Source: a virus. Taken from it: a stretch of 54,155 nucleotides of DNA. Position 1 is the stretch's first letter. Each line of letters opens with the position of its first letter. The position numbers and the translations under genes were made by a program. Location: the IMG/VR virus record IMGVR_UViG_3300009502_001060, positions 1 to 54,155 of that record; one strand, written 5' to 3'. The notes below the pieces were generated by a model. That model made no database searches. It was not told the DNA's origin and saw only the letters and a program-made list of their open reading frames with translations. This document shows positions 2,713-29,926 of the stretch, one piece after another.

Positions 2713-3403
2713 ACTTATGCCTAAAGAACTTGGTAGAATTGAGGGTTTCCAAGACAACCTCCTGAAGGTCCGTTTCTATAGAAGCATCCAATATGCTTAA
2801 CTTTCCCTTTCCTTCCCATTCAATTTTGAAATCGGCCATAGCTTCGATGATTGGATCTTGTTTTGCTTCTTCTTCATTAGGAGCAGAATCATATACCTTC
2901 ATCATTGACAAATCGCTTCCATCTTGTCCACTCTTACGCCATTCACTTCTCCATTTTTTCAAATGAATAACTTGACCACTCCATTTCTTCTGAACCCATT
3001 CAATTTCGTTGGGAAATCTGCAATCACTTATGAGAACAACCATTCGATCAGTTGACACACCACCTCTCTGAGCATCGATAATAATGTTTCGAAGCTGGTT
3101 ATCTACTTCATTGACCCAATACATACCACCTTCGCTTTCATATCGGCGTTGACATCCCCAAAAGACAAAAAGAGGTCGAACGTGTTCTTTTTGTTCTGGC
3201 GTCATGCCGAATATATCCAACTTGAACCCGTTTCTTCGAAGCATTTCCTGAACTTCAGTTTTCAGTTTATTGGCAAATGCCAATTCTATAACAGAATAAT
3301 TGTTTTTGGTCAAAATATTCTTTGCTATTTCCACAAAGGTATTTTTTCCGCAGCGGGCGTACCCCGAAACCCCCAAAACCGTAATGTTATTTGATTTTTG
3401 CAT
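2690..3403 (-). CDS. Deoxynucleoside monophosphate kinase (T4 gp1-like)
   Basis: The product phosphorylates dNMPs to dNDPs, supplying precursors for phage DNA synthesis. Near the N-terminus, VSGYARCGKNTF is a P-loop of the dNMP kinase type (G-x-x-x-x-G-K-[ST/N]T). The segments LAFANKLKTEV, WGCQRRYE and VLISDCRFPNEIEWV (Walker-B-like strand followed by RFPNE) match this family, in which RFPNE is highly characteristic. I place the start at the ATG at 3403, where AGAGAGG lies about ten bases upstream. The longer frame to 3412 would use TTG. The start overlaps the end of the upstream homing endonuclease by 17 bases, so that endonuclease sits directly in front of this gene. Confidence 0.8.
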   Translation of the reverse strand: MQKSNNITVLGVSGYARCGKNTFVEIAKNILTKNNYSVIELAFANKLKTEVQEMLRRNGFKLDIFGMTPEQKEHVRPLFVFWGCQRRYESEGGMYWVNEVDNQLRNIIIDAQRGGVSTDRMVVLISDCRFPNEIEWVQKKWSGQVIHLKKWRSEWRKSGQDGSDLSMMKVYDSAPNEEEAKQDPIIEAMADFKIEWEGKGKLSILDASIETDLQEVVLETLNSTKFFRHKSNGILTL

Positions 3404-4292
3404 GTTTCTCAAACCTCTCTTTATACTTTTCTACAAACCTTATTTCGCCATTGAGATATTTTTCTTTGAGTAATGATGAGTTTAGTCCTACATCAACAAG
3501 TTTATATTCATAACCCATTCGCCTACAAAACTCTTCCGCCGCAAGTTTTTTGGATACTACCACCTTCGTATTCCACAACTTTTGTGGTTTGACTTCCACT
3601 AACCAATGATTATCCACGAAAAAGTCGGGCTTATATGTTCTATCTACTCCTGCCCAATCTTTGTATGGTATTCTAAACTTTTTCCCCTGAGCACTCTCAC
3701 ATACAACATTATGACCTTCTATCTCATTTATGTAATATTGGAGTTCCCTTAAACTTCTAAAATGAAATCCCTTGTACCAATTCGCCCATCCATTGCCTGC
3801 ACCATTGGGAGTCGGTTTCCCATACATCGGATTATTCTTACCACTCGAAGACAAAGACCACTTCTTTTTGGCGTCTTCCATTCTCCGGTCGGCTATTTCT
3901 TTTCCGTATTTATCTACCCACATTTGATAAAGACTTTTACCCTGTTGAGATGCCTTCGCAATTTTTATAGTTCGGCGAGATTCCGCCAGCGTGTGTCCCG
4001 TCTGTTTTATGCCTTTATGAACAACAGAAATTTTCGACTTGGCTTCCTCGGAATGTTTCTTCCCATAAAAAGGATTTCCACTTCCTCGGAAAAGTTCCTT
4101 ACACTTTTCAGAATTCGATATAGCAATACACCGTTTACAATTTCCACCATTGCGACTTCCATACACCCAATCCCAATATCTCTTGTATGAGATTGGGGCA
4201 TTACACTTCGGACATACCCGTTCCCACTTTTTCGTGGTATCGCTCTTTTGCTCGTTGGTCAATTCGCTCTTTGTTTCTGATATAATACTCAT
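3387..4292 (-). CDS. Homing endonuclease: zinc finger, NUMOD3 and PD-(D/E)XK nuclease
   Basis: The 301-residue protein carries, in order, a zinc ribbon (CPKC...CKRC, residues 27-56), two NUMOD3-type DNA-binding motifs (NPFYGKKHSEEAKSKI near 73 and NPMYGKP near 153), and a C-terminal nuclease core. The core reads FRSLRELQYY (Glu), then YKPDFFVDN, then WLVEVKPQK, i.e. the E...PD...ExK pattern of PD-(D/E)XK enzymes such as TnsA-type nucleases. It has the same nuclease core as the endonucleases in the split nrdJ and uvsX genes here, but the domain order differs. It lies between dNMP kinase and the small genes of the clamp-loader cluster. A second frame overlapping its 5' end (4201-4356) suggests an old frameshift. 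Confidence 0.8.
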   Translation of the reverse strand: MSIISETKSELTNEQKSDTTKKWERVCPKCNAPISYKRYWDWVYGSRNGGNCKRCIAISNSEKCKELFRGSGNPFYGKKHSEEAKSKISVVHKGIKQTGHTLAESRRTIKIAKASQQGKSLYQMWVDKYGKEIADRRMEDAKKKWSLSSSGKNNPMYGKPTPNGAGNGWANWYKGFHFRSLRELQYYINEIEGHNVVCESAQGKKFRIPYKDWAGVDRTYKPDFFVDNHWLVEVKPQKLWNTKVVVSKKLAAEEFCRRMGYEYKLVDVGLNSSLLKEKYLNGEIRFVEKYKERFEKHAKIK

Positions 4293-15468: not shown

Positions 15469-18400
15469 TCAACTGCATTTACTCCACGAACAAGATACAC
15501 AAGTACAACATCCGTCGGAATAAATTAATTGTCCATTACAAGACGGGCATTTCTGACCATTAACGATAGTGCCATCTTTAATATATTTTTTCAGAACTCG
15601 GGCAGCAGCGGATGCCATACTGGTAATATCATCGGTTGCTTTTTGAAGTTGTTGTACTAAAAATTCTATTGGAACTCCATGTCTCATACTCATGGATGCC
15701 ATACGAAATAGAATTTGTTCGGTAGGAGTAAATTGTTTAGAAAAGTCCTCAATACAGATGTCATCAATTTCAAGAGCATACTGTCCCCTCTTAACTTTAG
15801 TAATCTTACCATTCTTCTGAGTAAACTTGAAGCTAAACCCATTGATATGTCCTCCAAAGATTTCATATGGTTGATTATTTTGGATACCGACCACGATAAC
15901 GAATTTCTCGCCTTTAACTGAAACAACATGAATGTCAGCATCAATGGATGGAAGACGTTTGGGATATTCCGTAGTCTTAGTTTGAATATTTTCACGAGAC
16001 AAGTTCAATTCTTTAAGTTCATCGTCAGAAAAGTTCTGATGCCCAATGACTACATTCTCATCCTTAAGTTTAAATGCCAGGGTCTTAAACGGCATATTAG
16101 AAACAATGCCGTACATCTTCTTATCAGGGAAAGCGGCAATACTCTTAACTTCTCGCTTATGAGCCTCTATGATGAAGTTATAAACTTCCTTCCATGTTGA
16201 GCCAATCGGAAGCATATAAGTCACTGAGATTGAGCTATCAATCCATTTCATTGTCTTGGACATCAACTCAAGCTTATCCATAGGAGACACATCAATAGAC
16301 TCCTTGAACTTGAACTTATGCCTATGTTCTTCTATGAATTTAGCAATTGGAACGCCAAGCTTGCCATCCCACGTATCCTTGATGGTATCTGAATTCATTG
16401 GAATAGAAACCCCCGCCTCCGTAAATGCGTCGCGAATGACACGAGGGACACAGAAATAATACTCATATTTACCAGACATACGAGTACGCTTCCAGAAGTA
16501 CATGAAAAAGGCAGGCTCGATTCCATATGACAATACAAAGTCACGAAACATCAAGGACAAAGTATTATGATTTATAACTCCATTTGCAGTAATATAAGTA
16601 TGATTTGGATTTGAGACTTCTATATCATACGTTTGGAAATTTTCCCGGGTTATAGATTTTACTTTAGACGTGACATAATTTTTTAAAGCAAATGGAAAAT
16701 ATAAATCCAATTCAACGTACGTAGATATATCATTCAAGGTATCTCTATTTAAAAAGATAACATTATCAAATTTGTTATTACATATTGCAGTAGTTAATCG
16801 ACAATACAATTTGGATTTAGACGACAATAATCGCGACAAAGTTTTTTGTATTGTTTGTATTAAACTAAACTCGACATAAATTTTTTCACAATCTATTGCA
16901 TAATCGAAATCCAACAACGATTGGGATTTTCTATGACTAATAAATCCAATCAACTCTCTATATTTTAAATTACTGTGCTTAAATCTTATTGTGGTTCTAA
17001 ACATTTCTTCATTCCACCCATCCTCGCCCTTGGTCATTTTGCTAAGATATGATTGTATTCCCAGATACATAAGGAGTTCTTGTACTTGACGAGTAATATG
17101 TTCATATTTAGAATAAAATGTTATATGCCCATTCGATACAGACCCATCCGCTTCAAATAAACCTCTCAAATAAGATGCAATTACGGATTTCGGGGAATGG
17201 AATATGTATTCGGGAATATTATAGGTATGTTCTTTACAAGAAGAAATATCCGAAATGTTTGATTTTTTCTCAAATCCATTATTTATCAAATATGTACCGA
17301 GATTTATAGAATGAGTCGAAATCTCATACATATTTTTATCGGAGGATTTCGTCACTGTACACTTCAACCCGAACAAGTCGTTAGTTAATTTAACAATATG
17401 ATCCACCAAATCAGTATCTTCGCCAAATACGGGAAATCTTATGCCATCAAGTTTTCCATTTTCACTTCTAAATTTTATACTACCGTCACCAGTAAATAAT
17501 CCAATATATTCCGCCAATTGTTCGGTTAATTTTTCGGGAAACTTGCATATAGATGAATTATGATGGCTGCTAGTTGCACAGCAATTCAGTGTAACATAAT
17601 TCGAACAAATTTCACTTACACCCATATAAGATACTATTATATCATCCACCGTAATATCAGGAGCATACTTCCAATCATATTTTCCACCATTTAAAATCCG
17701 AATTCTATGAGTCTCGGACATTTTAATTTGCCGTCCGTCATCTAAAGTTAAGACATATCCGTTTATCACCCCATTATTATAATAAGATACTATATCCGAC
17801 GTTCCATGCTCATGACAAATACTCACATCATCATTATAATCTATAAACTCTTTTTCTTTTGGCTTAATACCAATCAAATCCTTTATTTTTAATAATCCAT
17901 TGCTAGTAACGATTCGTGTATTTTCTTCAACACAACCCGTAGGAGCAATAGAACTGACAGTAACATTGCGAGCATGAGTACCTTTGAGGATAGGAACCTT
18001 GAACTCTTCATGCATCTTTTCCGACTCCTTGATGATACGAGCTACGAATGGAGCTTCACGCCACTTCTCTTTATTGAACAGCCCAAAGTCCCCCTTCTCA
18101 AGTCCCAATTCCTCGGTGCTGATATAGAGCCAATAGTTGTACCACTTGATAAACTCTTCGATAGCTTCATTACCTTCTTTAGAACCATAAGAAAGGCCCT
18201 TCTTGAAAAGCCATGCCGCAATGTTCGTTACACCCGCACCGGTCCGACGCAATTTACGAATAGCCAACTCTTGATGCGGAGTTGCAAATGTATGACTTAC
18301 CAACTCGCATTCATTGACGTTATCGAGGAAACGATTGACGGAATGACCAATCTTCTCTAATTGGCCCATGAAGATTTCCCGCTTGGCCGAGAACTTGCCA

Positions 18401-18564
18401 CAATTGATTGACGCTAAGACACATAGCGACTCTCGGGAGAGGTATTGCTCCGAGTTTTTTACCACAACCCCACCGTTCACCACAAAGTTGTGGTTATCTT
18501 TCACTTCTATATCGTATAGAGGTTTTACTTCATGATTTATTCTAACATTTATAAGTTTTCCCAT
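15469..18564 (-). CDS. nrdJ: Class II ribonucleotide reductase, C-terminal part, with IntC and a LAGLIDADG intein
   Basis: The 1031-residue product contains three parts. First comes the C-fragment of a split intein (residues 1-37), then reductase sequence from SEQYLSRESLCVLASINC. A complete intein (211-667) interrupts the conserved IAPTG/TLSLM motif, and the rest of the reductase follows. The end is typical of adenosylcobalamin-dependent NrdJ: MASMSMRHGVPIEFLVQQL followed by a terminal zinc/redox region CPSCNGQLIYSDGCCTCVSC. The enzyme makes deoxynucleotides and needs vitamin B12. It becomes functional only after trans-splicing with the product of 19614-22649 and removal of the internal inteins. 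Extein pieces sum to about 873 residues, in the range of NrdJ enzymes. Confidence 0.85.
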   Translation of the reverse strand: MGKLINVRINHEVKPLYDIEVKDNHNFVVNGGVVVKNSEQYLSRESLCVLASINCGKFSAKREIFMGQLEKIGHSVNRFLDNVNECELVSHTFATPHQELAIRKLRRTGAGVTNIAAWLFKKGLSYGSKEGNEAIEEFIKWYNYWLYISTEELGLEKGDFGLFNKEKWREAPFVARIIKESEKMHEEFKVPILKGTHARNVTVSSIAPTGCVEENTRIVTSNGLLKIKDLIGIKPKEKEFIDYNDDVSICHEHGTSDIVSYYNNGVINGYVLTLDDGRQIKMSETHRIRILNGGKYDWKYAPDITVDDIIVSYMGVSEICSNYVTLNCCATSSHHNSSICKFPEKLTEQLAEYIGLFTGDGSIKFRSENGKLDGIRFPVFGEDTDLVDHIVKLTNDLFGLKCTVTKSSDKNMYEISTHSINLGTYLINNGFEKKSNISDISSCKEHTYNIPEYIFHSPKSVIASYLRGLFEADGSVSNGHITFYSKYEHITRQVQELLMYLGIQSYLSKMTKGEDGWNEEMFRTTIRFKHSNLKYRELIGFISHRKSQSLLDFDYAIDCEKIYVEFSLIQTIQKTLSRLLSSKSKLYCRLTTAICNNKFDNVIFLNRDTLNDISTYVELDLYFPFALKNYVTSKVKSITRENFQTYDIEVSNPNHTYITANGVINHNTLSLMFRDFVLSYGIEPAFFMYFWKRTRMSGKYEYYFCVPRVIRDAFTEAGVSIPMNSDTIKDTWDGKLGVPIAKFIEEHRHKFKFKESIDVSPMDKLELMSKTMKWIDSSISVTYMLPIGSTWKEVYNFIIEAHKREVKSIAAFPDKKMYGIVSNMPFKTLAFKLKDENVVIGHQNFSDDELKELNLSRENIQTKTTEYPKRLPSIDADIHVVSVKGEKFVIVVGIQNNQPYEIFGGHINGFSFKFTQKNGKITKVKRGQYALEIDDICIEDFSKQFTPTEQILFRMASMSMRHGVPIEFLVQQLQKATDDITSMASAAARVLKKYIKDGTIVNGQKCPSCNGQLIYSDGCCTCVSCSWSKCS
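16564..17934 (-). other. Intein with two LAGLIDADG motifs, in nrdJ at IAPTG|T
   Basis: 457 residues from Cys211 (CVEENTRIVTSNGLLKIKDL) to Asn667. The end, TYITANGVINHN followed by Thr, has the standard His-Asn and a +1 Thr. The block-B region is MSETHRIRI. Two endonuclease motifs are visible: LAEYIGLFTGDGSI and YLRGLFEADGSV. Both splicing and homing functions look intact. Confidence 0.88.
18454..18564 (-). other. Split intein C-fragment (IntC) of NrdJ
   Basis: Residues 1-37 read MGKLINVRINHEVKPLYDIE and then VKDNHNFVVNGGVVVKN, followed by extein Ser38. This is intein blocks F and G. The penultimate residue is Lys instead of the usual His, which some active split inteins tolerate. It pairs with IntN at 19617-19925; together they make a 140-residue intein without an endonuclease domain. 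Confidence 0.85.
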
Positions 18565-18565
18565 G

Positions 18566-19573
18566 TTACTTCATTTCCTTCCTGAGATTAGTGAGTGATC
18601 CAAAGTACTTCTTTACAACACAAAGATTCATCCCAAAATGTTTTGGGATTTTCCCGTACGATTTCTGATATTGGACTACATTGTCATAGTTTCCAACAGT
18701 TATACAATGTCCCATATCCAAGATTGTTTTAAAGTACTTTTTGATTTTGCTTTGATACGTCTTGAAAGCATTCCCACGATACACATTTTTTCCAGTTTTC
18801 CAGTTGTATTTTTGTTGGCAGGAGTTGGAACACGTTTCTTCGTGGTAGTGGTCTTTTAGTCTTCGTCCATACTCTTTTCCACACTCCTTACAAACCCGTG
18901 TTATCGTCGGATTTTTAATCGTCGATTCTTCCGTTCTTAGTTTGGCGTATTTTTTCTTCGTTCTACCACCCGCCTCAGACTTCCAATATGAAATTCTCGC
19001 ATCTCGGTGCCGTTTTCTAACCTCGGGGTCTCGAAAATATTTGCGGGTCTGCTCGCCAATCTTGCTTTTAGTTTCATCGGAGTGCTTAATCCCATACATT
19101 GGGTTTTTTTCTCCTGAATAGTCAAACTTTTCATATTGACGTACAAATTCATTTTTCCATTTTTCAAGATCGAATTTGGTGACTGCCCCTAAACGGATCA
19201 ACCTTTTGATGTCGCCCTTTGACATTACGTCATAACGTATTCCCAGTTGTCGAAAGAAGTCGGAGTAGATTCTTTGATAGTCCGATTTCTCTTTGTTAGT
19301 GTACTTTATTTCCACAATCTCTCTGAGCTTATCGAACGTCCCATCATAAACGAAGAAATCGGGTTTGTAAGATTTCCCGTCTATTTCATAGGTTATATTT
19401 TCTGTTAGATAATAGACCCCGATGCTGTCCAGATATTTAGCATATACAAACTCCTGTGTAGATCGCAGATATACCTTCTTTCCAAAGTGTGTAGTATGAT
19501 ACCCACTATATCCTCGCCCTCCCTTGTATCCTCCAAGTTTTATTTTCCCGTTATGTAGTTCGCAGTTTGTCAT
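18566..19573 (-). CDS. Homing endonuclease inside the split nrdJ intein locus (PD-(D/E)XK, NUMOD3, zinc finger)
   Basis: From ATG 19573 the protein has 335 residues. The nuclease comes first: YLRSTQEFVYAKYL (Glu), SYKPDFFVYDG and REIVEIKYTNK give E...PD...ExK. It is followed by a NUMOD3 motif (GEKNPMYGIKHSDETKSKIG), a zinc finger (CKECGKEYG ... CSNSC) and a C-terminal helix-turn-helix (HFGMNLCVVKKYFGSLTNL). It lies 1 base before the IntC gene and 40 bases after the IntN gene. This is the 'fractured gene' arrangement, in which a free-standing endonuclease replaces the intein's internal one. Upstream is ATATTTATTGGT-ATG. The frame extends to 19609, but no better start is seen. Confidence 0.85.
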   Translation of the reverse strand: MTNCELHNGKIKLGGYKGGRGYSGYHTTHFGKKVYLRSTQEFVYAKYLDSIGVYYLTENITYEIDGKSYKPDFFVYDGTFDKLREIVEIKYTNKEKSDYQRIYSDFFRQLGIRYDVMSKGDIKRLIRLGAVTKFDLEKWKNEFVRQYEKFDYSGEKNPMYGIKHSDETKSKIGEQTRKYFRDPEVRKRHRDARISYWKSEAGGRTKKKYAKLRTEESTIKNPTITRVCKECGKEYGRRLKDHYHEETCSNSCQQKYNWKTGKNVYRGNAFKTYQSKIKKYFKTILDMGHCITVGNYDNVVQYQKSYGKIPKHFGMNLCVVKKYFGSLTNLRKEMK

Positions 19574-19613
19574 ACCAATAAATATCATCTCACAAACGAA
19601 AAAGAACAATATT

Positions 19614-22600
19614 TTACTTGTGAATCACTATGTCATCATCAGACGTAAGAGAATCTGCCCTAACATATCCTCGATTTTTAGTCAAGATTGGATGATCGGA
19701 AGAACACTCTATCTCGTATTTTTTATTCCCGTCTTCAATGGTAAGTGTTATCGTAACGTCATTCCTTTGTTGCCACGAATGAAGAAGTTCCTTTAATTCG
19801 TACTTGTTCTCGGCAATGTTATAGGACATTACCAAAAACTTTTTACCGGCTTTTACCAACTCATAAATTTCTCCCATATTCTTCCATCCATCATCTGTAA
19901 GTATATGGGCATCAATAGATAAGCAGCACGCATTAGTGGACAGAATACAAGAGTCATACTCGTCCTTCTCGTCGTACAAAGCGTCTGAATTACTATACTT
20001 ACGAGCAATATCAATATTCTGAATACCAGGTTCTGCATTTTGATGCATATTCTTGGCAATCAGTTCCATTAGCTTGCGAGCTTTAGTTAACTTGGTGAAT
20101 ACTTCCTTCTTACGGTCATGTGTGGCGAGGCGGTAATAACGTCCAGTATCCTTTTCCTTCGTAGTATGCATATCAATGCTATGCACATCCACATAAATTT
20201 TGTCGCCCTTCTTGATAGCAGGCACAGTGAATGACATTTCCCAATCTTCATCATTTTCCACGGCTTTGTAAAACTTTTCCGTGCATTGGACACTGATGTT
20301 GGCGTTCTGAATCTTGGTGTAATCAGACTTGACTCGGATGAACTCTTCTACGTCAGGATGGTCACAGGAAATACTGAATAACATGGCAGGAATCCGGCCG
20401 TTTTGACCAACAAAATATCCGATTTTGTCCTCAAACTCCATCCAATGGACTGCGCCAGTGCTTTGATTGGCCGAATTCAATACTTTACAGCCATTCGGAC
20501 GAAGACGTGAATTGTGAGTTAAAAACCCATTAGCTATTAAAGTTTTTGTGCTAGTCGCAGTAGCTATTACTTCTATTTCTCCTATAAACTCAATAGACAA
20601 AATCTTAGCTGGTGGATTTGACCTTCCTCCCATCTTTCTTCCTTTCCACAAAGAATCGGATTTTTTAAATAATCTCGGAGAACAAAACATTCCAACTAAT
20701 TTAACATTTTCCCATTTTCCCTTGGGACGAATACATTGACACCCGGAATTATTAGGAGATACATAATAGTCGATTTTATATTTATCTAATATAGATACTA
20801 TTTTATCAAAAACCAATCCTTTATTTTGACTAATACCTATTTGATGGTCACTTAACCAACCTTCTCCATCTAAAATTCCTGATAAATATCCACCTTCCCA
20901 CGAATCAATTTCTTTCCAAGGAGTTGTTGTAAAAGCTAATTCATCGCCGATTTTTAGTTTGTCCGTAGTTCTCCACTCATAATTACACATTGTTCTACCA
21001 TCGGGCTTTTTCTTATTGTCTCTTGCCACCCAAAGATGTTCCGAACTTGCCGTCATTTCTCCTTTATCTGTGATTACTCTATATGATGGGCGTCGGATTG
21101 TTTTTACACTTTCTACAACACATTCTTTAAATGTAGATTTTATAAAATTAAGTTCTTCGCCAAAACCTATCAATTTATCTCCAACATTTAATTTTTCAAC
21201 CGGTACGTGTTTCAAATCAGCAGTGAGAATTAATGTTCCTGGAGCTAGACAAAAGTCCACACCTAATCCCTGACGATAAGCAGCACACTTGGCGATAGTA
21301 TAGGCAGCATTCTTAATGATTGCCTCAAGACTATCCCACTCTTCATCTTCCCGTTTAGCACCGAGGGATACAGTAGTACAATTCCCAGTATTTAATCCGC
21401 CACTCAATGTAAAATTATGAAATTCTGGTACTTGGACGCACCATACATCCTCAATTCGGTCGGTTTCTTCCAACGATACAACTTTCCAGTTGACTTTTGA
21501 TTTGTCTTTTTCCAATGAATTTTTGTGAGTCTCCCAGTTTTGTTTATGGTTTGTCTTGGTAAAAAACGAATCGAACAAGCAGTCTTTCCATATGTGCATA
21601 CCATAAAGTTTATGATTTGGGTTTCCGTCAAACGGAGATTTATCCCGCATTAACCGAATGTCCGAACAATAAATGCCGACGCTTTCTATGATTTTCTTAA
21701 TGCGAAGTAAAACGTCATCGTGGGCACACGCCAAGTATGCTCTTCCTTCGTCGTCCACAGAACCATCAGCAGCAAAATAACCAATTAAGAACCCAAGAAC
21801 ATACTCTTCATTGTATTTGTCCAACTCTGGGATTTCACTTTTGAAATGTGAGGGTAGATATTGAACTGTAATTGCTTCCTCTCGTTCTATAATAGACCAA
21901 TTGAAACCATTAAACAACTTCACCAATTCTTTTGAATCGCCACAAAGATGAAGGCGACAAGTATTAGTTGCCTTGTCATAATCGCCATCTCCAAACACAT
22001 ATCCATGAATAAATCCAATTGGGCAATAATAACGAGAACCTCCGGTTGAAGGCATCCATTTACGCTTCACATATGGAAGCTGGTCGAACTGAGACAAAGC
22101 CATCGTTGTTTTCTCAATTATGGTTCCTCCTCTCTCCACAGTTCTCCAAATGTGATTAGCAGTACAAAACACTTCTTTCTTGAGTGTATATCTTCCAAGA
22201 GTAAGTTTATAGAGTCGTTGAGGGCCAAAGTTTTTTACTGTTGCGGGGACAAATGCCCCATAGTTATTCATAACGCTGATAGTTTGCCCATCATTAAACC
22301 ATTCAAATGTTCTAAGTCCTTGGTCGGTAATGAATTCTGTATCTTTGCTAAAACAATTGGCAAGGCTTATTTTACGTCCACTACCTGCCCCTTGCATGAT
22401 TCCACCCGAGGGGTGCCACCAATCGTTATAAATTTCATCAAACCACTGAGCACTCCAATATTCTCGGAGTTCTTGGGTAGGTTCGACGGAAGCTACAAAA
22501 TCACATACTCTTTTGACAGCCTGTGAATAGGATTCGTCGGATGTTAAAGCATATTTCTTTTTGAAAGCATCTATCGAGAATTGGTTGTTTTGAAAGTATT

Positions 22601-22649
22601 CTTCAGTGGTGACTTTTTTTACGTCATCGAATTTTGTTACGATTTCCAT
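19614..22649 (-). CDS. nrdJ: Class II ribonucleotide reductase, N-terminal part, with two inteins and IntN
   Basis: The 1011-residue product holds the N-terminal reductase domains. These include DWWHPSGGIMQGAGSGRKIS, CTTVSLGAKREDEEWDSLEA, GLGVDF/SRLRPNG, HPDVEEFIRVKSDYTKIQNA and ILSTNAC. Intein 1 (residues 99-423) precedes the conserved Cys of SLAN|C. Intein 2 (467-713) splits VDF|SRLRP. IntN (909-1011) follows the catalytic STNAC. The N-x-C-x-E active-site motif of class II enzymes is formed only after splicing: N-A-C is here and S-E is in the next gene. The start ATG has an AAGAAGAG ribosome site. No substrate-specificity call between di- and triphosphate was made. Confidence 0.85.
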   Translation of the reverse strand: MEIVTKFDDVKKVTTEEYFQNNQFSIDAFKKKYALTSDESYSQAVKRVCDFVASVEPTQELREYWSAQWFDEIYNDWWHPSGGIMQGAGSGRKISLANCFSKDTEFITDQGLRTFEWFNDGQTISVMNNYGAFVPATVKNFGPQRLYKLTLGRYTLKKEVFCTANHIWRTVERGGTIIEKTTMALSQFDQLPYVKRKWMPSTGGSRYYCPIGFIHGYVFGDGDYDKATNTCRLHLCGDSKELVKLFNGFNWSIIEREEAITVQYLPSHFKSEIPELDKYNEEYVLGFLIGYFAADGSVDDEGRAYLACAHDDVLLRIKKIIESVGIYCSDIRLMRDKSPFDGNPNHKLYGMHIWKDCLFDSFFTKTNHKQNWETHKNSLEKDKSKVNWKVVSLEETDRIEDVWCVQVPEFHNFTLSGGLNTGNCTTVSLGAKREDEEWDSLEAIIKNAAYTIAKCAAYRQGLGVDFCLAPGTLILTADLKHVPVEKLNVGDKLIGFGEELNFIKSTFKECVVESVKTIRRPSYRVITDKGEMTASSEHLWVARDNKKKPDGRTMCNYEWRTTDKLKIGDELAFTTTPWKEIDSWEGGYLSGILDGEGWLSDHQIGISQNKGLVFDKIVSILDKYKIDYYVSPNNSGCQCIRPKGKWENVKLVGMFCSPRLFKKSDSLWKGRKMGGRSNPPAKILSIEFIGEIEVIATATSTKTLIANGFLTHNSRLRPNGCKVLNSANQSTGAVHWMEFEDKIGYFVGQNGRIPAMLFSISCDHPDVEEFIRVKSDYTKIQNANISVQCTEKFYKAVENDEDWEMSFTVPAIKKGDKIYVDVHSIDMHTTKEKDTGRYYRLATHDRKKEVFTKLTKARKLMELIAKNMHQNAEPGIQNIDIARKYSNSDALYDEKDEYDSCILSTNACCLSIDAHILTDDGWKNMGEIYELVKAGKKFLVMSYNIAENKYELKELLHSWQQRNDVTITLTIEDGNKKYEIECSSDHPILTKNRGYVRADSLTSDDDIVIHK
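19617..19925 (-). other. Split intein N-fragment (IntN) of NrdJ
   Basis: 103 residues starting CLSIDAHILTDDGWKNMGEI directly after the extein Cys of STNAC. Block B is ECSSDHPILTKNRGYVRADS. The stop codon follows IVIHK. The segment DHPxxTKNRGYVRAD is very close to the published NrdJ-1 split intein as I remember it. The partner is at 18454-18564, about 1 kb downstream beyond an endonuclease gene. Confidence 0.88.
20511..21251 (-). other. Intein in nrdJ at VDF|SRLRP
   Basis: 247 residues from Cys467 (CLAPGTLILTADLKHVPVEK) to THN, followed by Ser714. Block B is TASSEHLWV. One clear LAGLIDADG-type motif (YLSGILDGEGWL) is visible; a second is not evident, so the endonuclease may be reduced or inactive, while the splicing blocks look complete. 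Confidence 0.85.
21381..22355 (-). other. Intein in nrdJ at SLAN|CTTVS
   Basis: 325 residues from Cys99 (CFSKDTEFITDQGLRTFEWF) to Asn423 (NFTLSGGLNTGN), then Cys424. Block B is FCTANHIWR. Two endonuclease motifs are present: FIHGYVFGDGDY and LGFLIGYFAADGSV. The penultimate residue is Gly instead of His, as in some reductase inteins. Confidence 0.87.
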
Positions 22650-22757: not shown

Positions 22758-24161
22758 TTACACGGAAGGATCATCGTTATCACTATGTGTCTTATCCCAC
22801 GTCTTCCTGAAGATTTCCTTAAGTTGCTCCTCGGCACCTTTCACTTTAGTAAGGATTTCCATTCCTTCGACAGAGTTCTGCTCGAAAATTTCAATTTTGC
22901 CCATTGATGTATCAAAAGAACACGGATACCACTTCCCATCAGGCCCGAATCGATTCTTCATTACATAAACACGTCCAGTGCCCGCCATCTTATCTTCTTT
23001 CTTGCGGGACAATGACAAAATAAAATCCCCAATCATAATTTTACGATAACTATCGGCTACGCCCATTGCCTCGATAATGTTTTCTTCGTGAACACCACGA
23101 TTAGACTGAGAAGCGGTCCATCCCGGCACTTGAAGTTCTCCGAGCATACCGCGAAGCTCCTCATATACGTTACCAGCTTCGCTATAAGAATTAGAATTTT
23201 TCTCTTGCATGAACGGACGAAGAAGGTCCGCATAATCAACAATTACAAAGTCAATCTTAATCCCCGAAATTAACTGCAATCGGTCAATATGCATTTTCAA
23301 TGTTGCGGCGGAAGCAACCTTAGTTGGGAAATACTTGATAAAAAGTTTACCGCAACCATTGGACTTAATTTCGTCTAGTTTCTTCTGAACTATAGACTGA
23401 TTCTTCCGAACCTCTTGAAATGCTAATCCAGAAAAAATGGAGTCATATCGAAGTCCTACATACTTATCATTTAACTCCATCGTGAAATGCATAACATTCT
23501 TACCCTGAAGCATTGCTTCTGCACCGAGCCGAGCCAAAAACCACGATTTTCCGCTTCCTGCAGGAGCAACGACAAATCCAAGTTCGCCCTTCCCTAATCC
23601 ACCATCAAGATGAGTATCAATAATGGCCCAATTGGTTTTGACGACTTCACGGGCCATTGCAGACATACGCTGGTCAATCTCAGTAAGATACTCATGCCCA
23701 AGGTCACGTTCCATACCCGCTTTGGATGCTTCACTAATAGTACTCCAAATTCCATCGTAATTACCTTCCTTCAATAAGATTTGGGATGTCCATATGGCAT
23801 TCTTCAATTTTTGATTACGACAAAATATTAAGAACTGTTCCTTAACGTACTTTAAGTCCTTTGCGCTTGAAACTTCACCATAAGCCATCTTTACTTGTTC
23901 TCTTACTGAAACTTGCATCAACGGATCTTGTATCCGCATAATTTCACATGCAAACACCGACATAGTTGGAATGTCCCGATAAGCAGGGAAGTAAGTAGAA
24001 ATAAACTTTACAATCCATTTGTGAGCATTCGTCTCGAAGTAGTCGGGTGACACGATATCGATAATTCGTTCCAAAAATGCACGGTCTGAAAGCATTGCGG
24101 CCATGCATTTAGATTGGAATGCTATACCAAACTGTTTCAATGTAGATTCATTATTTTCCAT
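22758..24161 (-). CDS. Replicative DnaB-like helicase (T4 gp41-like)
   Basis: The 467-residue protein has the length and layout of phage replicative helicases. A helical N-terminal domain is followed by a RecA-like motor with Walker A APAGSGKS (about 199-206), MHFTMELNDKYVGLR, Walker B KIDFVIVDYADLL, and WTASQSNRGV (the 'SQ.NR' motif of DnaB helicases). It should unwind DNA at the replication fork with primase. It lies next to nrdJ, exonuclease, UvsX and SSB genes, all transcribed leftward. No intein is present, although gp41 genes of related phages are known intein sites. Confidence 0.88.
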   Translation of the reverse strand: MENNESTLKQFGIAFQSKCMAAMLSDRAFLERIIDIVSPDYFETNAHKWIVKFISTYFPAYRDIPTMSVFACEIMRIQDPLMQVSVREQVKMAYGEVSSAKDLKYVKEQFLIFCRNQKLKNAIWTSQILLKEGNYDGIWSTISEASKAGMERDLGHEYLTEIDQRMSAMAREVVKTNWAIIDTHLDGGLGKGELGFVVAPAGSGKSWFLARLGAEAMLQGKNVMHFTMELNDKYVGLRYDSIFSGLAFQEVRKNQSIVQKKLDEIKSNGCGKLFIKYFPTKVASAATLKMHIDRLQLISGIKIDFVIVDYADLLRPFMQEKNSNSYSEAGNVYEELRGMLGELQVPGWTASQSNRGVHEENIIEAMGVADSYRKIMIGDFILSLSRKKEDKMAGTGRVYVMKNRFGPDGKWYPCSFDTSMGKIEIFEQNSVEGMEILTKVKGAEEQLKEIFRKTWDKTHSDNDDPSV

Positions 24162-24530: not shown

Positions 24531-25604
24531 TTATTCCTTACGAACAGCAGCATCCAAAGTAGCAAACGTTTCCTCAATCCATCGGGTATGATTAGGTAAA
24601 TTACTATCAATTCCATCTTCCCGAACCATCTTGAAAAAAGCATTGCGGTCAAGCATTGGAATCTTCTCTGTCGCAAGACATTCATTACAATGCAATTGAC
24701 CTATCGTAGTCAACATCGTTTCTTTCAACTGCATAAGCGCAACATTCCTATCCAGAACACTTTTTCCATTGGCAATATTGTCACAAACTTTATACTTATT
24801 TTTAAGGTCATCGGCATGTTTAATGATTTCATCCACAGTATGCAATTTGTCCTCATTAAGCCACGGAAAATGCTTCACAATGGTTTTGGGACCAGCAAGT
24901 TCAATGCCGGGGACATTATCAGAATCATCCCCATCAAGTGCCCGATACAGGACAAAATTATTAGGATGAATGCTATAGTCAGCCAGAACCTCGGCGGGGC
25001 CATAAATACGTTTCTTAGTCGGAGAATAAACACTGACACGACCATCACAGAGTTGAAGGAAATCACGATCTGCCGACATTACATAGATTTTATTCGAACT
25101 CTTAAAATAATCTAGTGCCAAATAAGCAATAACATCATCCGATTCCTGATGGTCGAGAGAGAGAATATTGACGGGGAGAACTTGTAAATACTGAGTGAAT
25201 CGAATATATTGCCGCTTACAACTTTCCTCTTCAATAGGAGCACTTGACATTTCTTCATATGCTCGGTTAAGACGAATTTTATTCTTTCTGTGTAATTTAT
25301 ATTCGGGAAATATTTGATGCCGCTTGAAAGAACCCCCAACCCCATCAAAAATCACAACGCAACGAGTCGGAGCAAGTAACTTAATAGCATAACCGAGTGA
25401 TTTTAAGGAACCCGTTACCCCCCCAGTATGATTTCCATTTTCATCCATAGCAGGATTTGCATTCCACGCCCTTAGAAATAGATTATTTCCATCTACCAAA
25501 AGAATACTAGAGTTAGTATCTCGCTTCCAGTCCTTCTTCGGACCAGCCTTCATATTTTGAAGAATACCGTAGAGTCTGGACTTTTCTGTTTGGCTAAGTT
25601 CCAT
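24531..25604 (-). CDS. 5'-3' exonuclease/flap nuclease (T4 RNase H-like)
   Basis: This 357-residue PIN/FEN-type nuclease has the expected acidic clusters in order: ILLVDGNNLFLRAW (about 34), FDGVGGSFKRHQIFPEYKLH, DHQESDDVIAYLALD (about 150), VMSADRDFLQL (about 175), and ALDGDDSDNVPGIELAGPKT, which opens the helix-three-turn-helix domain. It removes RNA primers and flaps from lagging-strand fragments. A strong AAGGAAGA ribosome site lies before ATG 25604, which overlaps the stop of the UvsX C-terminal gene by one base. Confidence 0.87.
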   Translation of the reverse strand: MELSQTEKSRLYGILQNMKAGPKKDWKRDTNSSILLVDGNNLFLRAWNANPAMDENGNHTGGVTGSLKSLGYAIKLLAPTRCVVIFDGVGGSFKRHQIFPEYKLHRKNKIRLNRAYEEMSSAPIEEESCKRQYIRFTQYLQVLPVNILSLDHQESDDVIAYLALDYFKSSNKIYVMSADRDFLQLCDGRVSVYSPTKKRIYGPAEVLADYSIHPNNFVLYRALDGDDSDNVPGIELAGPKTIVKHFPWLNEDKLHTVDEIIKHADDLKNKYKVCDNIANGKSVLDRNVALMQLKETMLTTIGQLHCNECLATEKIPMLDRNAFFKMVREDGIDSNLPNHTRWIEETFATLDAAVRKE

Positions 25605-26887
25605 TATTCTTCCTTAACGGCATTTTTAGTTATGTCATCATTTTCGTTTCCTGTTTCCTCAACATCCTCAACAATGGGATTTGCGGAAGGGTCACGATAC
25701 TGCATGATATAAGTATCGGAGATAGAATTATAAATTTCCTCCTTGAGTGCCTCATCCGAATTCAATTTATCCACAAATTCAGCAGTGCTGAATTCAATCT
25801 TTTCGCCTGTGCTCGGGCGAGTGTATTTCCAATTACGCCAGTCACCAGTAATAATACCATAAAGCTTCATAAAATCAATCCAACTTTTGTAGTTTTGAAT
25901 TCCCGAGTCATAATGAATTTCAAATGCAGCCGTGCGCCAGTTGGGTCCGAGCCGATTCTTAATAACTTGGGCCTGGCATTTCATACCAATAATTTCATCG
26001 CCCTTCTTGAGTTTCCCGAGACTAACGAAACGAACACGAATCGAACAAGAATACGAAAATGCTTTTCCTCCAGGAGTAATCCACTTCTCACTATGTAATC
26101 CACCATTCATGTTATAACGTAATTGATTGGTAAACACAGTAAGAATACGTTGACGAGCAACTAGGCCCGTAATCTTTCGCATTGCTTTGGCAATGACCTT
26201 GGCCTTCCCCGTACTGAATCCATCCACTCCATGCTCAGATTCCATTTCACTTTCGACAGATGCTTGGGTTAAGGAGTCGACGAAAATAGTTAGAAGACGA
26301 TCCTTATTGACTTTTCGAAAGGCACCAATGCATAGTTCCATTTTAGTAAAAAGTTCTTCGAGTGTAGTGAAGGGAACATAATTGACGTTTCGTACATCAA
26401 TCCCAAGGGCAGTCCAGAATGTCTTGTCCACCGCAAATTCGGAATCAAAAAATACAGCTAGACCGCCTCGCCGCTGAGTCTCGGCAATCATTTGAGCACA
26501 TATTAAACTTTTTCCAGTATTATGATTCAATATACCATTTCCAAAATAACAATGTTCTGGATGTTCTACAGTCACATCAACAATTCTATATTTTCCAATA
26601 TAATTCACTGATTTTATCACATGATACTTGTTATCTTCACAGAGAATAGTCGTTTTGTCGGGAATAATGTCTTTGGCTTCTAACCATCCAACATTAGTAA
26701 AAAATCTATGTTCTTTACTAACTTTAATTTCCATTCCATTATCGAGAAATACTTTATATGTATCCAATATTCCTTTTTCAATGAATCCAATTATAGGAGC
26801 ATAAACATCCCCAATGGTCTTAACCTTTACTGTTTTACCACGGCTAAGCAAATCTTTTACTTCTCCAACCGCTATTGTTTTTTTCAT
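25604..26887 (-). CDS. uvsX: UvsX/RecA recombinase, C-terminal part, preceded by IntC
   Basis: The first 123 residues of this 427-residue product are the large C-fragment of a split intein. The rest begins TGKSLICAQMIAETQRRGGL, the second half of the Walker A loop. It continues with VFFDSEFAVDKTFW, Walker B LLTIFVDSLTQA, and TVFTNQLRYNMNGG...WITPGGKAFSYSCSIRVRF, i.e. the RecA core. An acidic C-terminal tail follows (VEDVEETGNENDD). After trans-splicing with 28025-28339 the loop becomes GLES-TGKS and the protein about 394 residues. UvsX drives strand exchange in phage recombination-dependent replication. Its start overlaps the endonuclease stop as ATGA. Confidence 0.87.
   Translation of the reverse strand: MKKTIAVGEVKDLLSRGKTVKVKTIGDVYAPIIGFIEKGILDTYKVFLDNGMEIKVSKEHRFFTNVGWLEAKDIIPDKTTILCEDNKYHVIKSVNYIGKYRIVDVTVEHPEHCYFGNGILNHNTGKSLICAQMIAETQRRGGLAVFFDSEFAVDKTFWTALGIDVRNVNYVPFTTLEELFTKMELCIGAFRKVNKDRLLTIFVDSLTQASVESEMESEHGVDGFSTGKAKVIAKAMRKITGLVARQRILTVFTNQLRYNMNGGLHSEKWITPGGKAFSYSCSIRVRFVSLGKLKKGDEIIGMKCQAQVIKNRLGPNWRTAAFEIHYDSGIQNYKSWIDFMKLYGIITGDWRNWKYTRPSTGEKIEFSTAEFVDKLNSDEALKEEIYNSISDTYIMQYRDPSANPIVEDVEETGNENDDITKNAVKEE
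26519..26887 (-). other. Split intein C-fragment (IntC, 123 residues) of UvsX
   Basis: The fragment starts MKKTIAVGEVKDLLSRGKTV and contains block B (VSKEHRFFTNVGWLEAKDII) and blocks F/G (RIVDVTVEHPEHCYFGNGIL then NHN), followed by +1 Thr. Almost the whole splicing domain is in this piece, unlike canonical split inteins, where IntC is 35-40 residues. Confidence 0.87.
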
Positions 26888-27990
26888 ACGATATTTCGTT
26901 TTAATTTTTCGATATTTTTATTATCCATAATAATTAATTGTGCCTGTATTCGTTCCATAATATATGTCAAATCATATCGGGTTAGGTCTAGAGTTCTTTC
27001 GGTCAGAAAACCGCCCCATAACAATCCAAATTTATGACAATATTGTTCCGCCGCCTTCGCTTTGATTTGATTAATTCGCATATCTATCATATCATACGGT
27101 TTGATCTCATAAATAATTGGATTGTTGAATTCATCGGCCAATACAATATCCGGACAATATGTTCTCGCAACTCCATCCGAATTGATATATGGAATTCTAT
27201 GTTTTGATATTTGAAATAATCGGTTTGTATCAATGAAATGACAAACAACCTTTAATTCTAACGAAGAACGGCAGAAATATTTCACACCTCCATGTAAAAC
27301 CCAGCACTTAACACCTACTCCTGCCTGATTTCCAGGAGATTTGCCATACATTGGATTAAGGTTTCCTGTTTGAGGATTATCTTGCGGAAATCCATATTTT
27401 CTACATATTTTATATATTTTTCTGGCACCAAGATTAAATTCGACCTTCATCGAATCATATACTTTCTGCTTATATTTGAGCTTTTTCTTTAACACCCGAA
27501 ACCTACTTACCATTTCATTTGTTATTGGTCTAGATTCTTTCCCTGTTAATGTCAGTGCCGATTTTCTTCCATTTATAACGGAGATCGACCGTATGTATCG
27601 TTTAGAATTTTCCCTGCGAACCGCTTCTAAATTTTTATATTTCAAAAATCGAAGCACCTGTTTCTGTGAAATTCCCTTCATAATGATAAAAACATCATTT
27701 AGAATTGCTCCGTTAATAATGGCATCCGAAATAATATTGCCGTATTTATCATCCAATGCTTGACATTCCATCACGTGTCGTTTTTCCGATTTTTCTTTTG
27801 CCCGAATTGTTCTATGAGTTCGATTATTGTGGCGAAGTTTATCATCTAACAAATATTCTTTAGCTATTCTCCAAATAGGTTTTTTCCCCAATCCACAATA
27901 AGATTGGCGGATTTCGAATTCATTCATCCCATTCGTGATTGAGTCAACGATATGACGGACAATCGGTGGATCTGATATTTTATTTGCCAT
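26884..27990 (-). CDS. Homing endonuclease inside the split uvsX intein locus (NUMOD3, PD-(D/E)XK)
   Basis: The 368-residue protein starts with helix-turn-helix-like segments (RHIVDSITNGMNEFEIRQSY; KKPIWRIAKEYLLDDK). It continues with repeated helical DNA-binding segments and a NUMOD3-like NLNPMYGKSPGNQAG near 220. It ends with the nuclease core YFCRSSLELKVVCHFI (Glu), ARTYCPDIVLAD and IIYEIKPYDM, again E...PD...ExK. It occupies the gap between the two halves of the uvsX intein, 34 bases after the first and overlapping the second by four. It is the counterpart of the endonuclease in nrdJ, but with the domain order reversed. Confidence 0.83.
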   Translation of the reverse strand: MANKISDPPIVRHIVDSITNGMNEFEIRQSYCGLGKKPIWRIAKEYLLDDKLRHNNRTHRTIRAKEKSEKRHVMECQALDDKYGNIISDAIINGAILNDVFIIMKGISQKQVLRFLKYKNLEAVRRENSKRYIRSISVINGRKSALTLTGKESRPITNEMVSRFRVLKKKLKYKQKVYDSMKVEFNLGARKIYKICRKYGFPQDNPQTGNLNPMYGKSPGNQAGVGVKCWVLHGGVKYFCRSSLELKVVCHFIDTNRLFQISKHRIPYINSDGVARTYCPDIVLADEFNNPIIYEIKPYDMIDMRINQIKAKAAEQYCHKFGLLWGGFLTERTLDLTRYDLTYIMERIQAQLIIMDNKNIEKLKRNIV

Positions 27991-28024
27991 ATGGATAATA
28001 TAACATAAATATCAGGTCGTGGCG

Positions 28025-28339
28025 TCAATCTTCAATAATTACTTCTATTTTTGTATCTTCTGTGACACACGATTCCAATCCCGACAATTCAATAAACTTA
28101 CCCGCTGGCATTCCACCTTTTTTGCGATTGGAAATTGCCAAATCAAGAATGCTTGACCCCGTGGATAGCCAGTCGGTCACATTCGAGGGATCATCCTCTT
28201 CATCCAAAAAGAAAGAAACTTTTGTTCCGTCTTTCTGTGATTTATTGAGTTCTTTTTGAAGTAAAACTGCCAATTCATCGCGGTCAATATTGGCGTCGGA
28301 TTCAATATGCTTACTGGAGGTCTTCTTTTTGTCGGTCAT
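28025..28339 (-). CDS. uvsX: UvsX/RecA recombinase, N-terminal part, ending in a 14-residue IntN
   Basis: Residues 1-90 are the N-terminus of a phage RecA/UvsX: VTDWLSTGSSILDLAISNRK, then GGMPAGKFIELSGLES, which is the strand and first half of the Walker A loop. Directly after GLES come CVTEDTKIEVIIED and a stop. This tail matches the start of an intein (Cys1, then a beta strand), and the matching C-fragment begins the second uvsX gene. The product alone cannot bind ATP. Confidence 0.85.
   Translation of the reverse strand: MTDKKKTSSKHIESDANIDRDELAVLLQKELNKSQKDGTKVSFFLDEEDDPSNVTDWLSTGSSILDLAISNRKKGGMPAGKFIELSGLESCVTEDTKIEVIIED
28028..28069 (-). other. Ultra-short split intein N-fragment (IntN, 14 residues) of UvsX
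   Basis: CVTEDTKIEVIIED is the entire N-fragment. Canonical IntN pieces are near 100 residues; atypical split inteins with N-fragments of about 16-25 residues have been described from phage metagenomes (AceL-TerL and VidaL types). This is at the short end of that range. Confidence 0.82.
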
Positions 28340-29413: not shown

Positions 29414-29926
29414 TTAACAAAAATCTTTGACTTTTTCTAAACCCGCATATTTTGTCAGGTAAGATTTTGCATTCTCAAGTAGAGTCGTATTATCACCGAA
29501 GTACCCTATTCCAAGGTTGCATTTAACACAAAGAAGCCCACGAAGATTACCCGTCAAATGGTCATGGTCAATACAGAGATTTCTTTTACAATCAGCACCC
29601 GACCTACCACAAATCTCACAACATCCGCCTCGCTCTTCCAACATTCGGGCATAGTCTTCTGGCGTCACGCCATAACGTTTTTTGAGAGTAGCCTTCTCAT
29701 CTATCTCACGAGTCCGTTCAGGATTATCAACCCTCCACTTCTGAATCCACTCTCGGTACTTGTCTTTGTGAGATTCTCTCCATTTCCCACTCCACACCCG
29801 TCGCTTCTCCTTGGTATTCTTCCTGTACCGCTGAATATTTTCTTGGTGGGAAAATCTCCACTTACGATGGTATTCTAGTTTTTCAGGAGTAGTCATATTT
29901 TGATCTGTGTCAAAGCATTCACACAT
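29414..29926 (-). CDS. Endonuclease VII-like HNH nuclease
   Basis: The C-terminal 90 residues match recombination endonuclease VII: RYGVTPEDYARMLEERGGCC, a zinc pair CEICG ... CVKCN, and the catalytic DHDHLTGNLRGLLC. The N-terminal 75 residues consist of repeated basic segments (EYHRKWRFSHQENIQRYRK; WSGKWRESHKDKYREWIQKW) like the DNA-binding arms of HNH homing endonucleases. It could therefore be a Holliday-junction resolvase (T4 gp49 role) or a homing endonuclease; the position after SSB is compatible with both. ATG 29896 (MTTPEKLEYHRKWRF) is an alternative start. Confidence 0.75.
   Translation of the reverse strand: MCECFDTDQNMTTPEKLEYHRKWRFSHQENIQRYRKNTKEKRRVWSGKWRESHKDKYREWIQKWRVDNPERTREIDEKATLKKRYGVTPEDYARMLEERGGCCEICGRSGADCKRNLCIDHDHLTGNLRGLLCVKCNLGIGYFGDNTTLLENAKSYLTKYAGLEKVKDFC

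What the first reader, a model, noticed from the sequence alone, without database searches (positions are those of the whole stretch)
25604..28339. uvsX fractured by an extremely asymmetric split intein (14-residue IntN, 123-residue IntC)
The recombinase is cut inside its ATP-binding loop: GLES ends the first gene's extein and TGKS begins the second's. Only 14 intein residues (CVTEDTKIEVIIED) stay with the N-half; blocks B, F and G are all on the C-half. Canonical split inteins have about 100 residues in IntN. Known atypical ones (AceL-TerL, VidaL types) have about 16-25, so this may be among the shortest natural N-fragments. A 1.1-kb endonuclease gene separates the halves. UvsX activity would depend strictly on trans-splicing.
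Basis: partly seen in the sequence, partly recalled or inferred. Interest (0 to 1): 0.9.

Follow-up and report, generated by a model that had tools for sequence, protein, structure and literature searches.

The report
Phage recombinase split by mini intein
A phage's essential DNA-recombination gene is cut in two by a selfish DNA element, and the two protein halves almost certainly weld themselves together through a split intein whose front piece is only 14 residues long (13 in most relatives), slightly shorter than any natural one described in the literature I could search.

Summary
uvsX (minus strand) is broken inside its Walker A motif. The N-half ends GLES|CVTEDTKIEVIIED-stop (IntN 14 aa). 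After a 1,107-bp PD-(D/E)XK nuclease gene comes an ORF starting with a 123-aa IntC that ends HN|TGKS. All class-1 catalytic residues are present. Thirteen complete split pairs (the window plus 12 IMG/VR contigs) share this site: IntN is 13 aa in ten and 14 aa in three, so the window is not the extreme. Related phages carry the same intein contiguous (136-146 aa, against 14+123=137) or lack it. AlphaFold puts the split in the turn after beta2; the nearest solved fold is VidaL, a known split intein of this type. Five of six nuclease-less split alleles keep nuclease-gene scars. Window uvsX sits inside an intein-free clade, so the AT-rich insert arrived recently, probably by homing. The published natural minimum found was 15 aa (PolB16 OarG), so the record is beaten by only 1-2 residues. 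Splicing is inferred, not shown. Verdict: a new member of the atypically split inteins in a fractured-gene arrangement. Its main value is the natural series of intein-free, contiguous, split+nuclease and split+scar alleles, with three-piece UvsX in some relatives.

The parts
28070..28339 (-). uvsX N-extein (90 aa, ends KFIELSGLES: first half of Walker A)
   Evidence: ORF; PHROG 97 UvsX-like E 8e-10
28028..28069 (-). IntN, 14 aa: CVTEDTKIEVIIED (block A/N1, Cys1, beta1-beta2)
   Evidence: fits residues 1-14 of the contiguous homologue model; GC 0.26
28025..28027 (-). TGA stop of the N-half; homologues use TAA, TGA or TAG at this place
26884..27990 (-). intergenic homing-type endonuclease gene (368 aa), PD-(D/E)XK motif RSSLE...PDIV...EIK, 4-bp ATGA overlap with the IntC ORF
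   Evidence: Pfam TnsA-like N E 6e-6; PHROG endonuclease E 3e-13; invariant E245, D281, E295, K297 in 8 homologues
26519..26887 (-). IntC, 123 aa: block B (SKEH), F (IVDVTVEHPEHCYF) and G (NGILNHN), penultimate His, terminal Asn
   Evidence: AlphaFold pLDDT 93.9
25604..26518 (-). uvsX C-extein (TGKS..., Thr+1), rest of the recombinase
   Evidence: Pfam RecA E 1e-31; 92% identical to intein-free L002/L008

Best explanation
The locus is a fractured uvsX gene carrying a class-1, atypically split intein at the P-loop: Cys1, Thr+1, and a split in the turn between beta2 and beta3 (the 'S1' position). The N-half (UvsX 1-90 + IntN 14 aa) and the C-half (IntC 123 aa + rest of UvsX) are translated separately. 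The acidic IntN strand docks on IntC, completes the Hint fold, and the intein splices in trans to give UvsX with an intact GLESTGKS Walker A motif. The PD-(D/E)XK gene between the halves most likely cuts intein-less uvsX at or near the P-loop codons, so that the whole IntN-nuclease-IntC block is copied in (homing). Shown by sequence: the anatomy, catalytic residues, recurrence, fold fit, recent gain, and nuclease decay in sister alleles. Inferred: splicing, its necessity for UvsX, and cleavage by the nuclease.
For: Catalytic residues Cys1, block B S-x-x-H, block F Asp, His122, Asn123 and Thr+1 are all present; S57, H60, D104, H112, H122 and N123 are invariant over 17 homologues. Thirteen complete pairs with IntN of 13-14 aa. 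A contiguous homologue at the same site is 136 aa, against 14+123=137. AlphaFold pLDDT 95 with the split in the beta2-beta3 turn. Foldseek best hit is VidaL, TM 0.88. dN/dS of IntC 0.07-0.32. IntN carries net charge -1 to -6, against a positive first 45 residues of IntC in 12 of 13 pairs. Window uvsX groups inside intein-free alleles (95/87 and 100/99 support), while its IntC is 67-72% identical to inteins whose uvsX flanks are only 58-67% identical. The insert has GC 0.26-0.34 against 0.41-0.42 in uvsX. Nuclease scars in 5 of 6 nuclease-less split alleles. One uvsX only in a 353-kb relative.
Against: No direct evidence of splicing or nuclease cutting. The window is a fragment, so another uvsX elsewhere in that genome cannot be excluded. 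In L017 the charge complementarity is absent (-1 / -3).
Confidence: 0.92

Rival explanations
1. The split intein works, but the intergenic nuclease is a passenger or unrelated free-standing endonuclease that merely landed in the gap; the intein did not spread by its action.
For: Nuclease homologues also occur as free-standing genes elsewhere (L155-L163), and the window has another one at 3387-4292. Several split alleles live without it.
Against: The closest nuclease relatives in the scan (the first seven loci) all sit at this uvsX split. The nuclease end and the IntC start overlap by 4 bp in most nuclease-bearing loci (window, L005, L016, L017, L018, L019, L023, L065; L063 overlaps by more). 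Catalytic residues are invariant. Recent gain into an intein-free uvsX clade.
Confidence: 0.12
2. uvsX is dead here: the insertion broke the gene, the intein no longer splices, and recombination is supplied by another recombinase or the host.
For: The P-loop is interrupted, and the record is a fragment, so another recombinase could be elsewhere.
Against: Both exteins are intact, with dN/dS about 0.1 where it could be estimated for the window; the window C-extein is 92% identical to intact alleles. All intein catalytic residues are conserved. The pattern recurs in 13 phages with diverse stop codons.
Confidence: 0.03
3. The halves are joined at the RNA or translation level (ribosome bypass, stop read-through or an RNA intron) rather than by protein splicing.
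For: Phages do use translational bypassing (T4 gene 60, from memory). A group I intron does exist in uvsX of relative L064.
Against: TAA, TAG and TGA are all used at the IntN end. No Rfam intron in the window. Gap lengths vary from 77 to 1,341 bp. The intein catalytic residues, useless in this model, are conserved.
Confidence: 0.02

Closest known systems
VidaL atypically split intein (PDB 6vgv/6vgw)
   Same: Class-1 Hint fold, natural S1 split after beta2, cysteine-dependent, very short IntN (16 aa according to PMC13014065). Best structural match, TM 0.88, rmsd 1.8; sequence profile match E 1e-6.
   Different: Only 22% identity; IntN 16 aa against 13-14 aa here. Its host gene was not verified with these tools.
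PolB16 OarG split intein (PMC10189870)
   Same: Natural S1 split, record-short IntN of 15 aa, trans-splicing shown in vitro.
   Different: Ser1/Ser+1, cysteine-independent, IntC 168 aa, in a PolB gene. Here Cys1/Thr+1, IntC 123 aa, in uvsX, and IntN is 1-2 residues shorter.
Fractured genes with a nuclease gene between split-intein halves (Dassa et al. 2009, from memory; paper not held)
   Same: Same gene order: extein-IntN, free-standing nuclease, IntC-extein, in phage replication genes.
   Different: From memory those cases have canonical ~100-aa IntN. The second uvsX split in L017 has a DUF559-type nuclease, while the P-loop nuclease is TnsA/endonuclease-I-like.
Contiguous intein in Salicola phage SCTP-2 RecA-like gp204 (MF360958, L012)
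   Same: Inserted at the same Walker A position; 143 aa; related to the window IntC (tblastn E 5e-4, 26%).
   Different: Not split, very divergent; that gene carries a second contiguous intein.

Membership tests
Class-1 inteins (Hint) | Cys/Ser1, block B TxxH-like, block F Asp/His, His-Asn at the end, Cys/Ser/Thr+1 | tested here: met
   C1, S57-K-E-H60, D104, H112, H122, N123, T+1; invariant over homologues except that +1 is T or S
Class-1 inteins (Hint) | Horseshoe Hint fold | tested here: met
   AlphaFold of the contiguous homologue pLDDT 95.1; 62 PDB matches at E<=0.001, the leading ones inteins
Atypically (S1) split inteins | Natural split near the N terminus, after beta2 | tested here: met
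   Split falls in the turn between strands 7-11 and 15-19 of the contiguous homologue
Atypically (S1) split inteins | Trans-splicing activity | not testable with these tools
   needs expression or mass spectrometry
Fractured gene with homing nuclease | Nuclease ORF between the two half genes, not inside the intein | tested here: met
   27990-26884(-); homologues in L005, L016, L017, L018, L063, L065, L023
Fractured gene with homing nuclease | Empty-site alleles and recent gain | tested here: met
   77 of 79 uvsX relatives empty; window nested in an intein-free clade
Fractured gene with homing nuclease | Nuclease cuts the empty allele and drives homing | not testable with these tools
   needs a cleavage assay and a mixed infection
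PD-(D/E)XK endonucleases | E...D...ExK catalytic signature | tested here: met
   E245, D281, E295-I-K297 invariant in 8 sequences; Pfam TnsA-like N just above cut-off in the window
Canonical split inteins (DnaE, gp41-1 type) | IntN ~100 aa, IntC ~35 aa | tested here: not met
   14 / 123 aa

The most novel reading that the evidence does not exclude
Splitting of this intein is recurrent or reversible: one uvsX site cycles through empty, contiguous, split with nuclease, split with nuclease scar, and possibly re-fused. L066 is contiguous, yet it sits with split L064/L068 and keeps a Met exactly where IntC would start (...VIIE-MKKEK...). In L017/L020 UvsX is made from three polypeptides by two short-IntN split inteins.
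Probability: 0.4. Interest if true: 0.68.

Novelty: new member of a known kind. Interest (0 to 1): 0.55.

Why it matters
It gives a family of natural IntN peptides of 13-14 residues, below the published natural minimum I could find (15), short enough for cheap chemical synthesis and protein labelling. It also gives an unusually complete natural series for how split inteins arise and outlive their nuclease. Because the break is in the ATP-binding loop of the phage's own recombinase, the element interrupts the enzyme expected to carry out its own homing: T4-type homing uses UvsX or host RecA (PMC2988022).

Tried and rejected
A scan of 85,462 bacterial and archaeal genomes with the IntC profile found no relative. 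The INPHARED phage collection gave only distant inteins. The second-site IntC of L017 did not match VidaL in the PDB, so I dropped the idea that VidaL is that second uvsX intein. Recoding or read-through was rejected because all three stop codons are used. Co-conversion around the insertion is only suggestive: 0.73/0.77 identity to L008 in the first 30 bp on either side, against 0.83-0.90 in the next four bins except one at 0.83. A single clade of split forms is rejected (AU p 0.0004), but the direction (repeated splitting or re-fusion) is unresolved because deep nodes are weak. dS between uvsX exteins is often saturated, so dN/dS there is rough. Literature: Dassa 2009 is not held; no held paper joins 'split intein' with 'UvsX' and metagenomes, so an earlier description in a subscription journal cannot be excluded.

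Full report
Observation. On the minus strand of the window the UvsX recombinase is encoded in two ORFs. The first, 28339-28025, ends GLES + CVTEDTKIEVIIED + TGA. The second, 26887-25604, begins with 123 residues ending NGILNHN, followed by TGKSLICAQ. The intervening ORF 27990-26884 encodes a 368-residue nuclease and shares ATGA with the IntC start. Pfam finds RecA on both halves (weakly on the short one) and Intein_splicing, below its curated cut-off, on the second. PHROGs calls both halves UvsX-like. Joining the exteins gives GLESTGKS. Among 77 intein-free relatives the same stretch reads GLEGTGKS (34), GLEQSGKS (27), GLEASGKS (13), GLESTGKS (2) and GQESSGKS (1), matching the flanks of most intein-bearing alleles.

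Recurrence. Scans of IMG/VR with the IntC, then with its profile, found the same insertion in 18 further loci. Thirteen complete split pairs including the window have IntN of 13 aa (ten) or 14 aa (window, L015, L018) and IntC of 121-126 aa. Nuclease present: window, L005, L016, L017, L018, L063, L065 (and L019, L023 where the contig cuts the N-half). Nuclease absent: L015, L020, L022, L064, L067, L068. Five of these six keep recognisable C-terminal scars of the nuclease gene, and L022 is 99.06% identical over 5.5 kb to L023, which retains at least 248 residues of it. The same site carries contiguous inteins of 136, 146 and 137 aa in L021, L024/L025 and L066, and a divergent 143-aa one in Salicola phage SCTP-2. 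The window's 14+123=137 is the length of one whole mini-intein.

Fold. AlphaFold of contiguous L021 (alignment A3) gives pLDDT 95.1 with strands 7-11 and 15-19 separated by the turn 12-14, where the natural split lies. The window IntC alone folds confidently (93.9) with its first six residues unpaired. Foldseek ranks VidaL first (TM 0.88), itself an S1-split intein according to PMC13014065.

Selection and mobility. IntC has dN/dS 0.07-0.32 among window, L005, L015 and L016. The IntC of the window is 67-72% identical to those of L005, L015 and L016, while the uvsX exteins are 58-67%, with lower synonymous divergence in IntC. The nearest uvsX genes (94% in the tree columns) are intein-free, and window groups inside them with 95/87 and 100/99 support. 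The inserted segments have GC 0.26, 0.34 and 0.30 against 0.41-0.42 for the exteins. This is the picture of a recent arrival, most simply by homing. The nuclease keeps an intact E...D...ExK signature. That it cuts uvsX is inferred.

Is UvsX dependent on trans-splicing? There is no second uvsX in the 54-kb record, and a single fractured copy in a 353,772-bp relative. With the P-loop divided between two chains, and with split alleles kept after nuclease loss, dependence is the natural conclusion, but it is not shown.

Evolution. The tree places contiguous L066 with split L064 and L068 (100/99), and a tree with all split forms as one clade is rejected (AU p 0.0004). At least two changes between states therefore occurred. 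L066 reads ...VIIE-MKKEK..., with a Met exactly where IntC starts in split relatives, which suggests re-fusion. Repeated splitting is not excluded.

Comparison with the literature. PMC10189870 calls the 15-aa IntN of PolB16 OarG the shortest characterised, and PMC13014065 (2026) gives 15-37 aa for natural atypical inteins, with VidaL at 16 aa and the S1 position. The present family is 13-14 aa, so the length record is real on these sources but slight, and untested for activity. The gene-nuclease-gene order is the fractured-gene arrangement known from phage metagenomes (from memory; that paper is not held). Hence: a new member of a known kind, whose natural series and three-piece relatives (L017, L020: second short-IntN fracture ...GDKY|CVDPFTTKIKIRYKV in L017) are the more interesting part.

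Noticed in passing
L017:4989-7749; L020:4986-7769; L021:4689-7831: A second fracture in uvsX further downstream: a 15-aa IntN (CVDPFTTKIKIRYKV in L017), a DUF559-type nuclease (family checked in L017), then a C-half starting with an IntC of about 130 aa. In L017 and L020 UvsX is therefore encoded in three pieces needing two trans-splicing events.
   Followed up: partly
L064:4424-6581; L066:4734-7885: uvsX with the P-loop intein, a second-site split intein with a longer IntN (about 32-35 aa) whose IntC follows directly, and a further interruption after TTSGG: a group I intron in L064 (RF00028, 5684-6100, 54 bits), and in L066 a Vsr-like nuclease gene at the same place.
   Followed up: partly
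window 15469-22649 (-): The ribonucleotide reductase large subunit is also fractured: its N-gene ends in a canonical ~100-aa IntN right after TNAC (apparently the NxCxE active-site motif), a NUMOD3 nuclease ORF (18566-19609) follows, and the C-gene starts with a ~37-aa IntC ending KN|SEQYLS. Three further contiguous inteins seem to lie in the two genes.
   Followed up: partly
window 3387-4292 (-) and 29414-29926 (-): Further free-standing nucleases: a NUMOD3 + TnsA-like protein related to the uvsX nuclease family, and an endonuclease VII-like protein near ssb.
   Followed up: no
L020:8954-9772, L064:7653-8435, L068:7396-8178: The replicative helicase of relatives appears fractured at its own P-loop (APxGxGK|C...), ending in an IntN-like tail and, in L020 and L068, followed by a nuclease-like ORF; in the window this helicase (22758-24161) is intact.
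   Followed up: no
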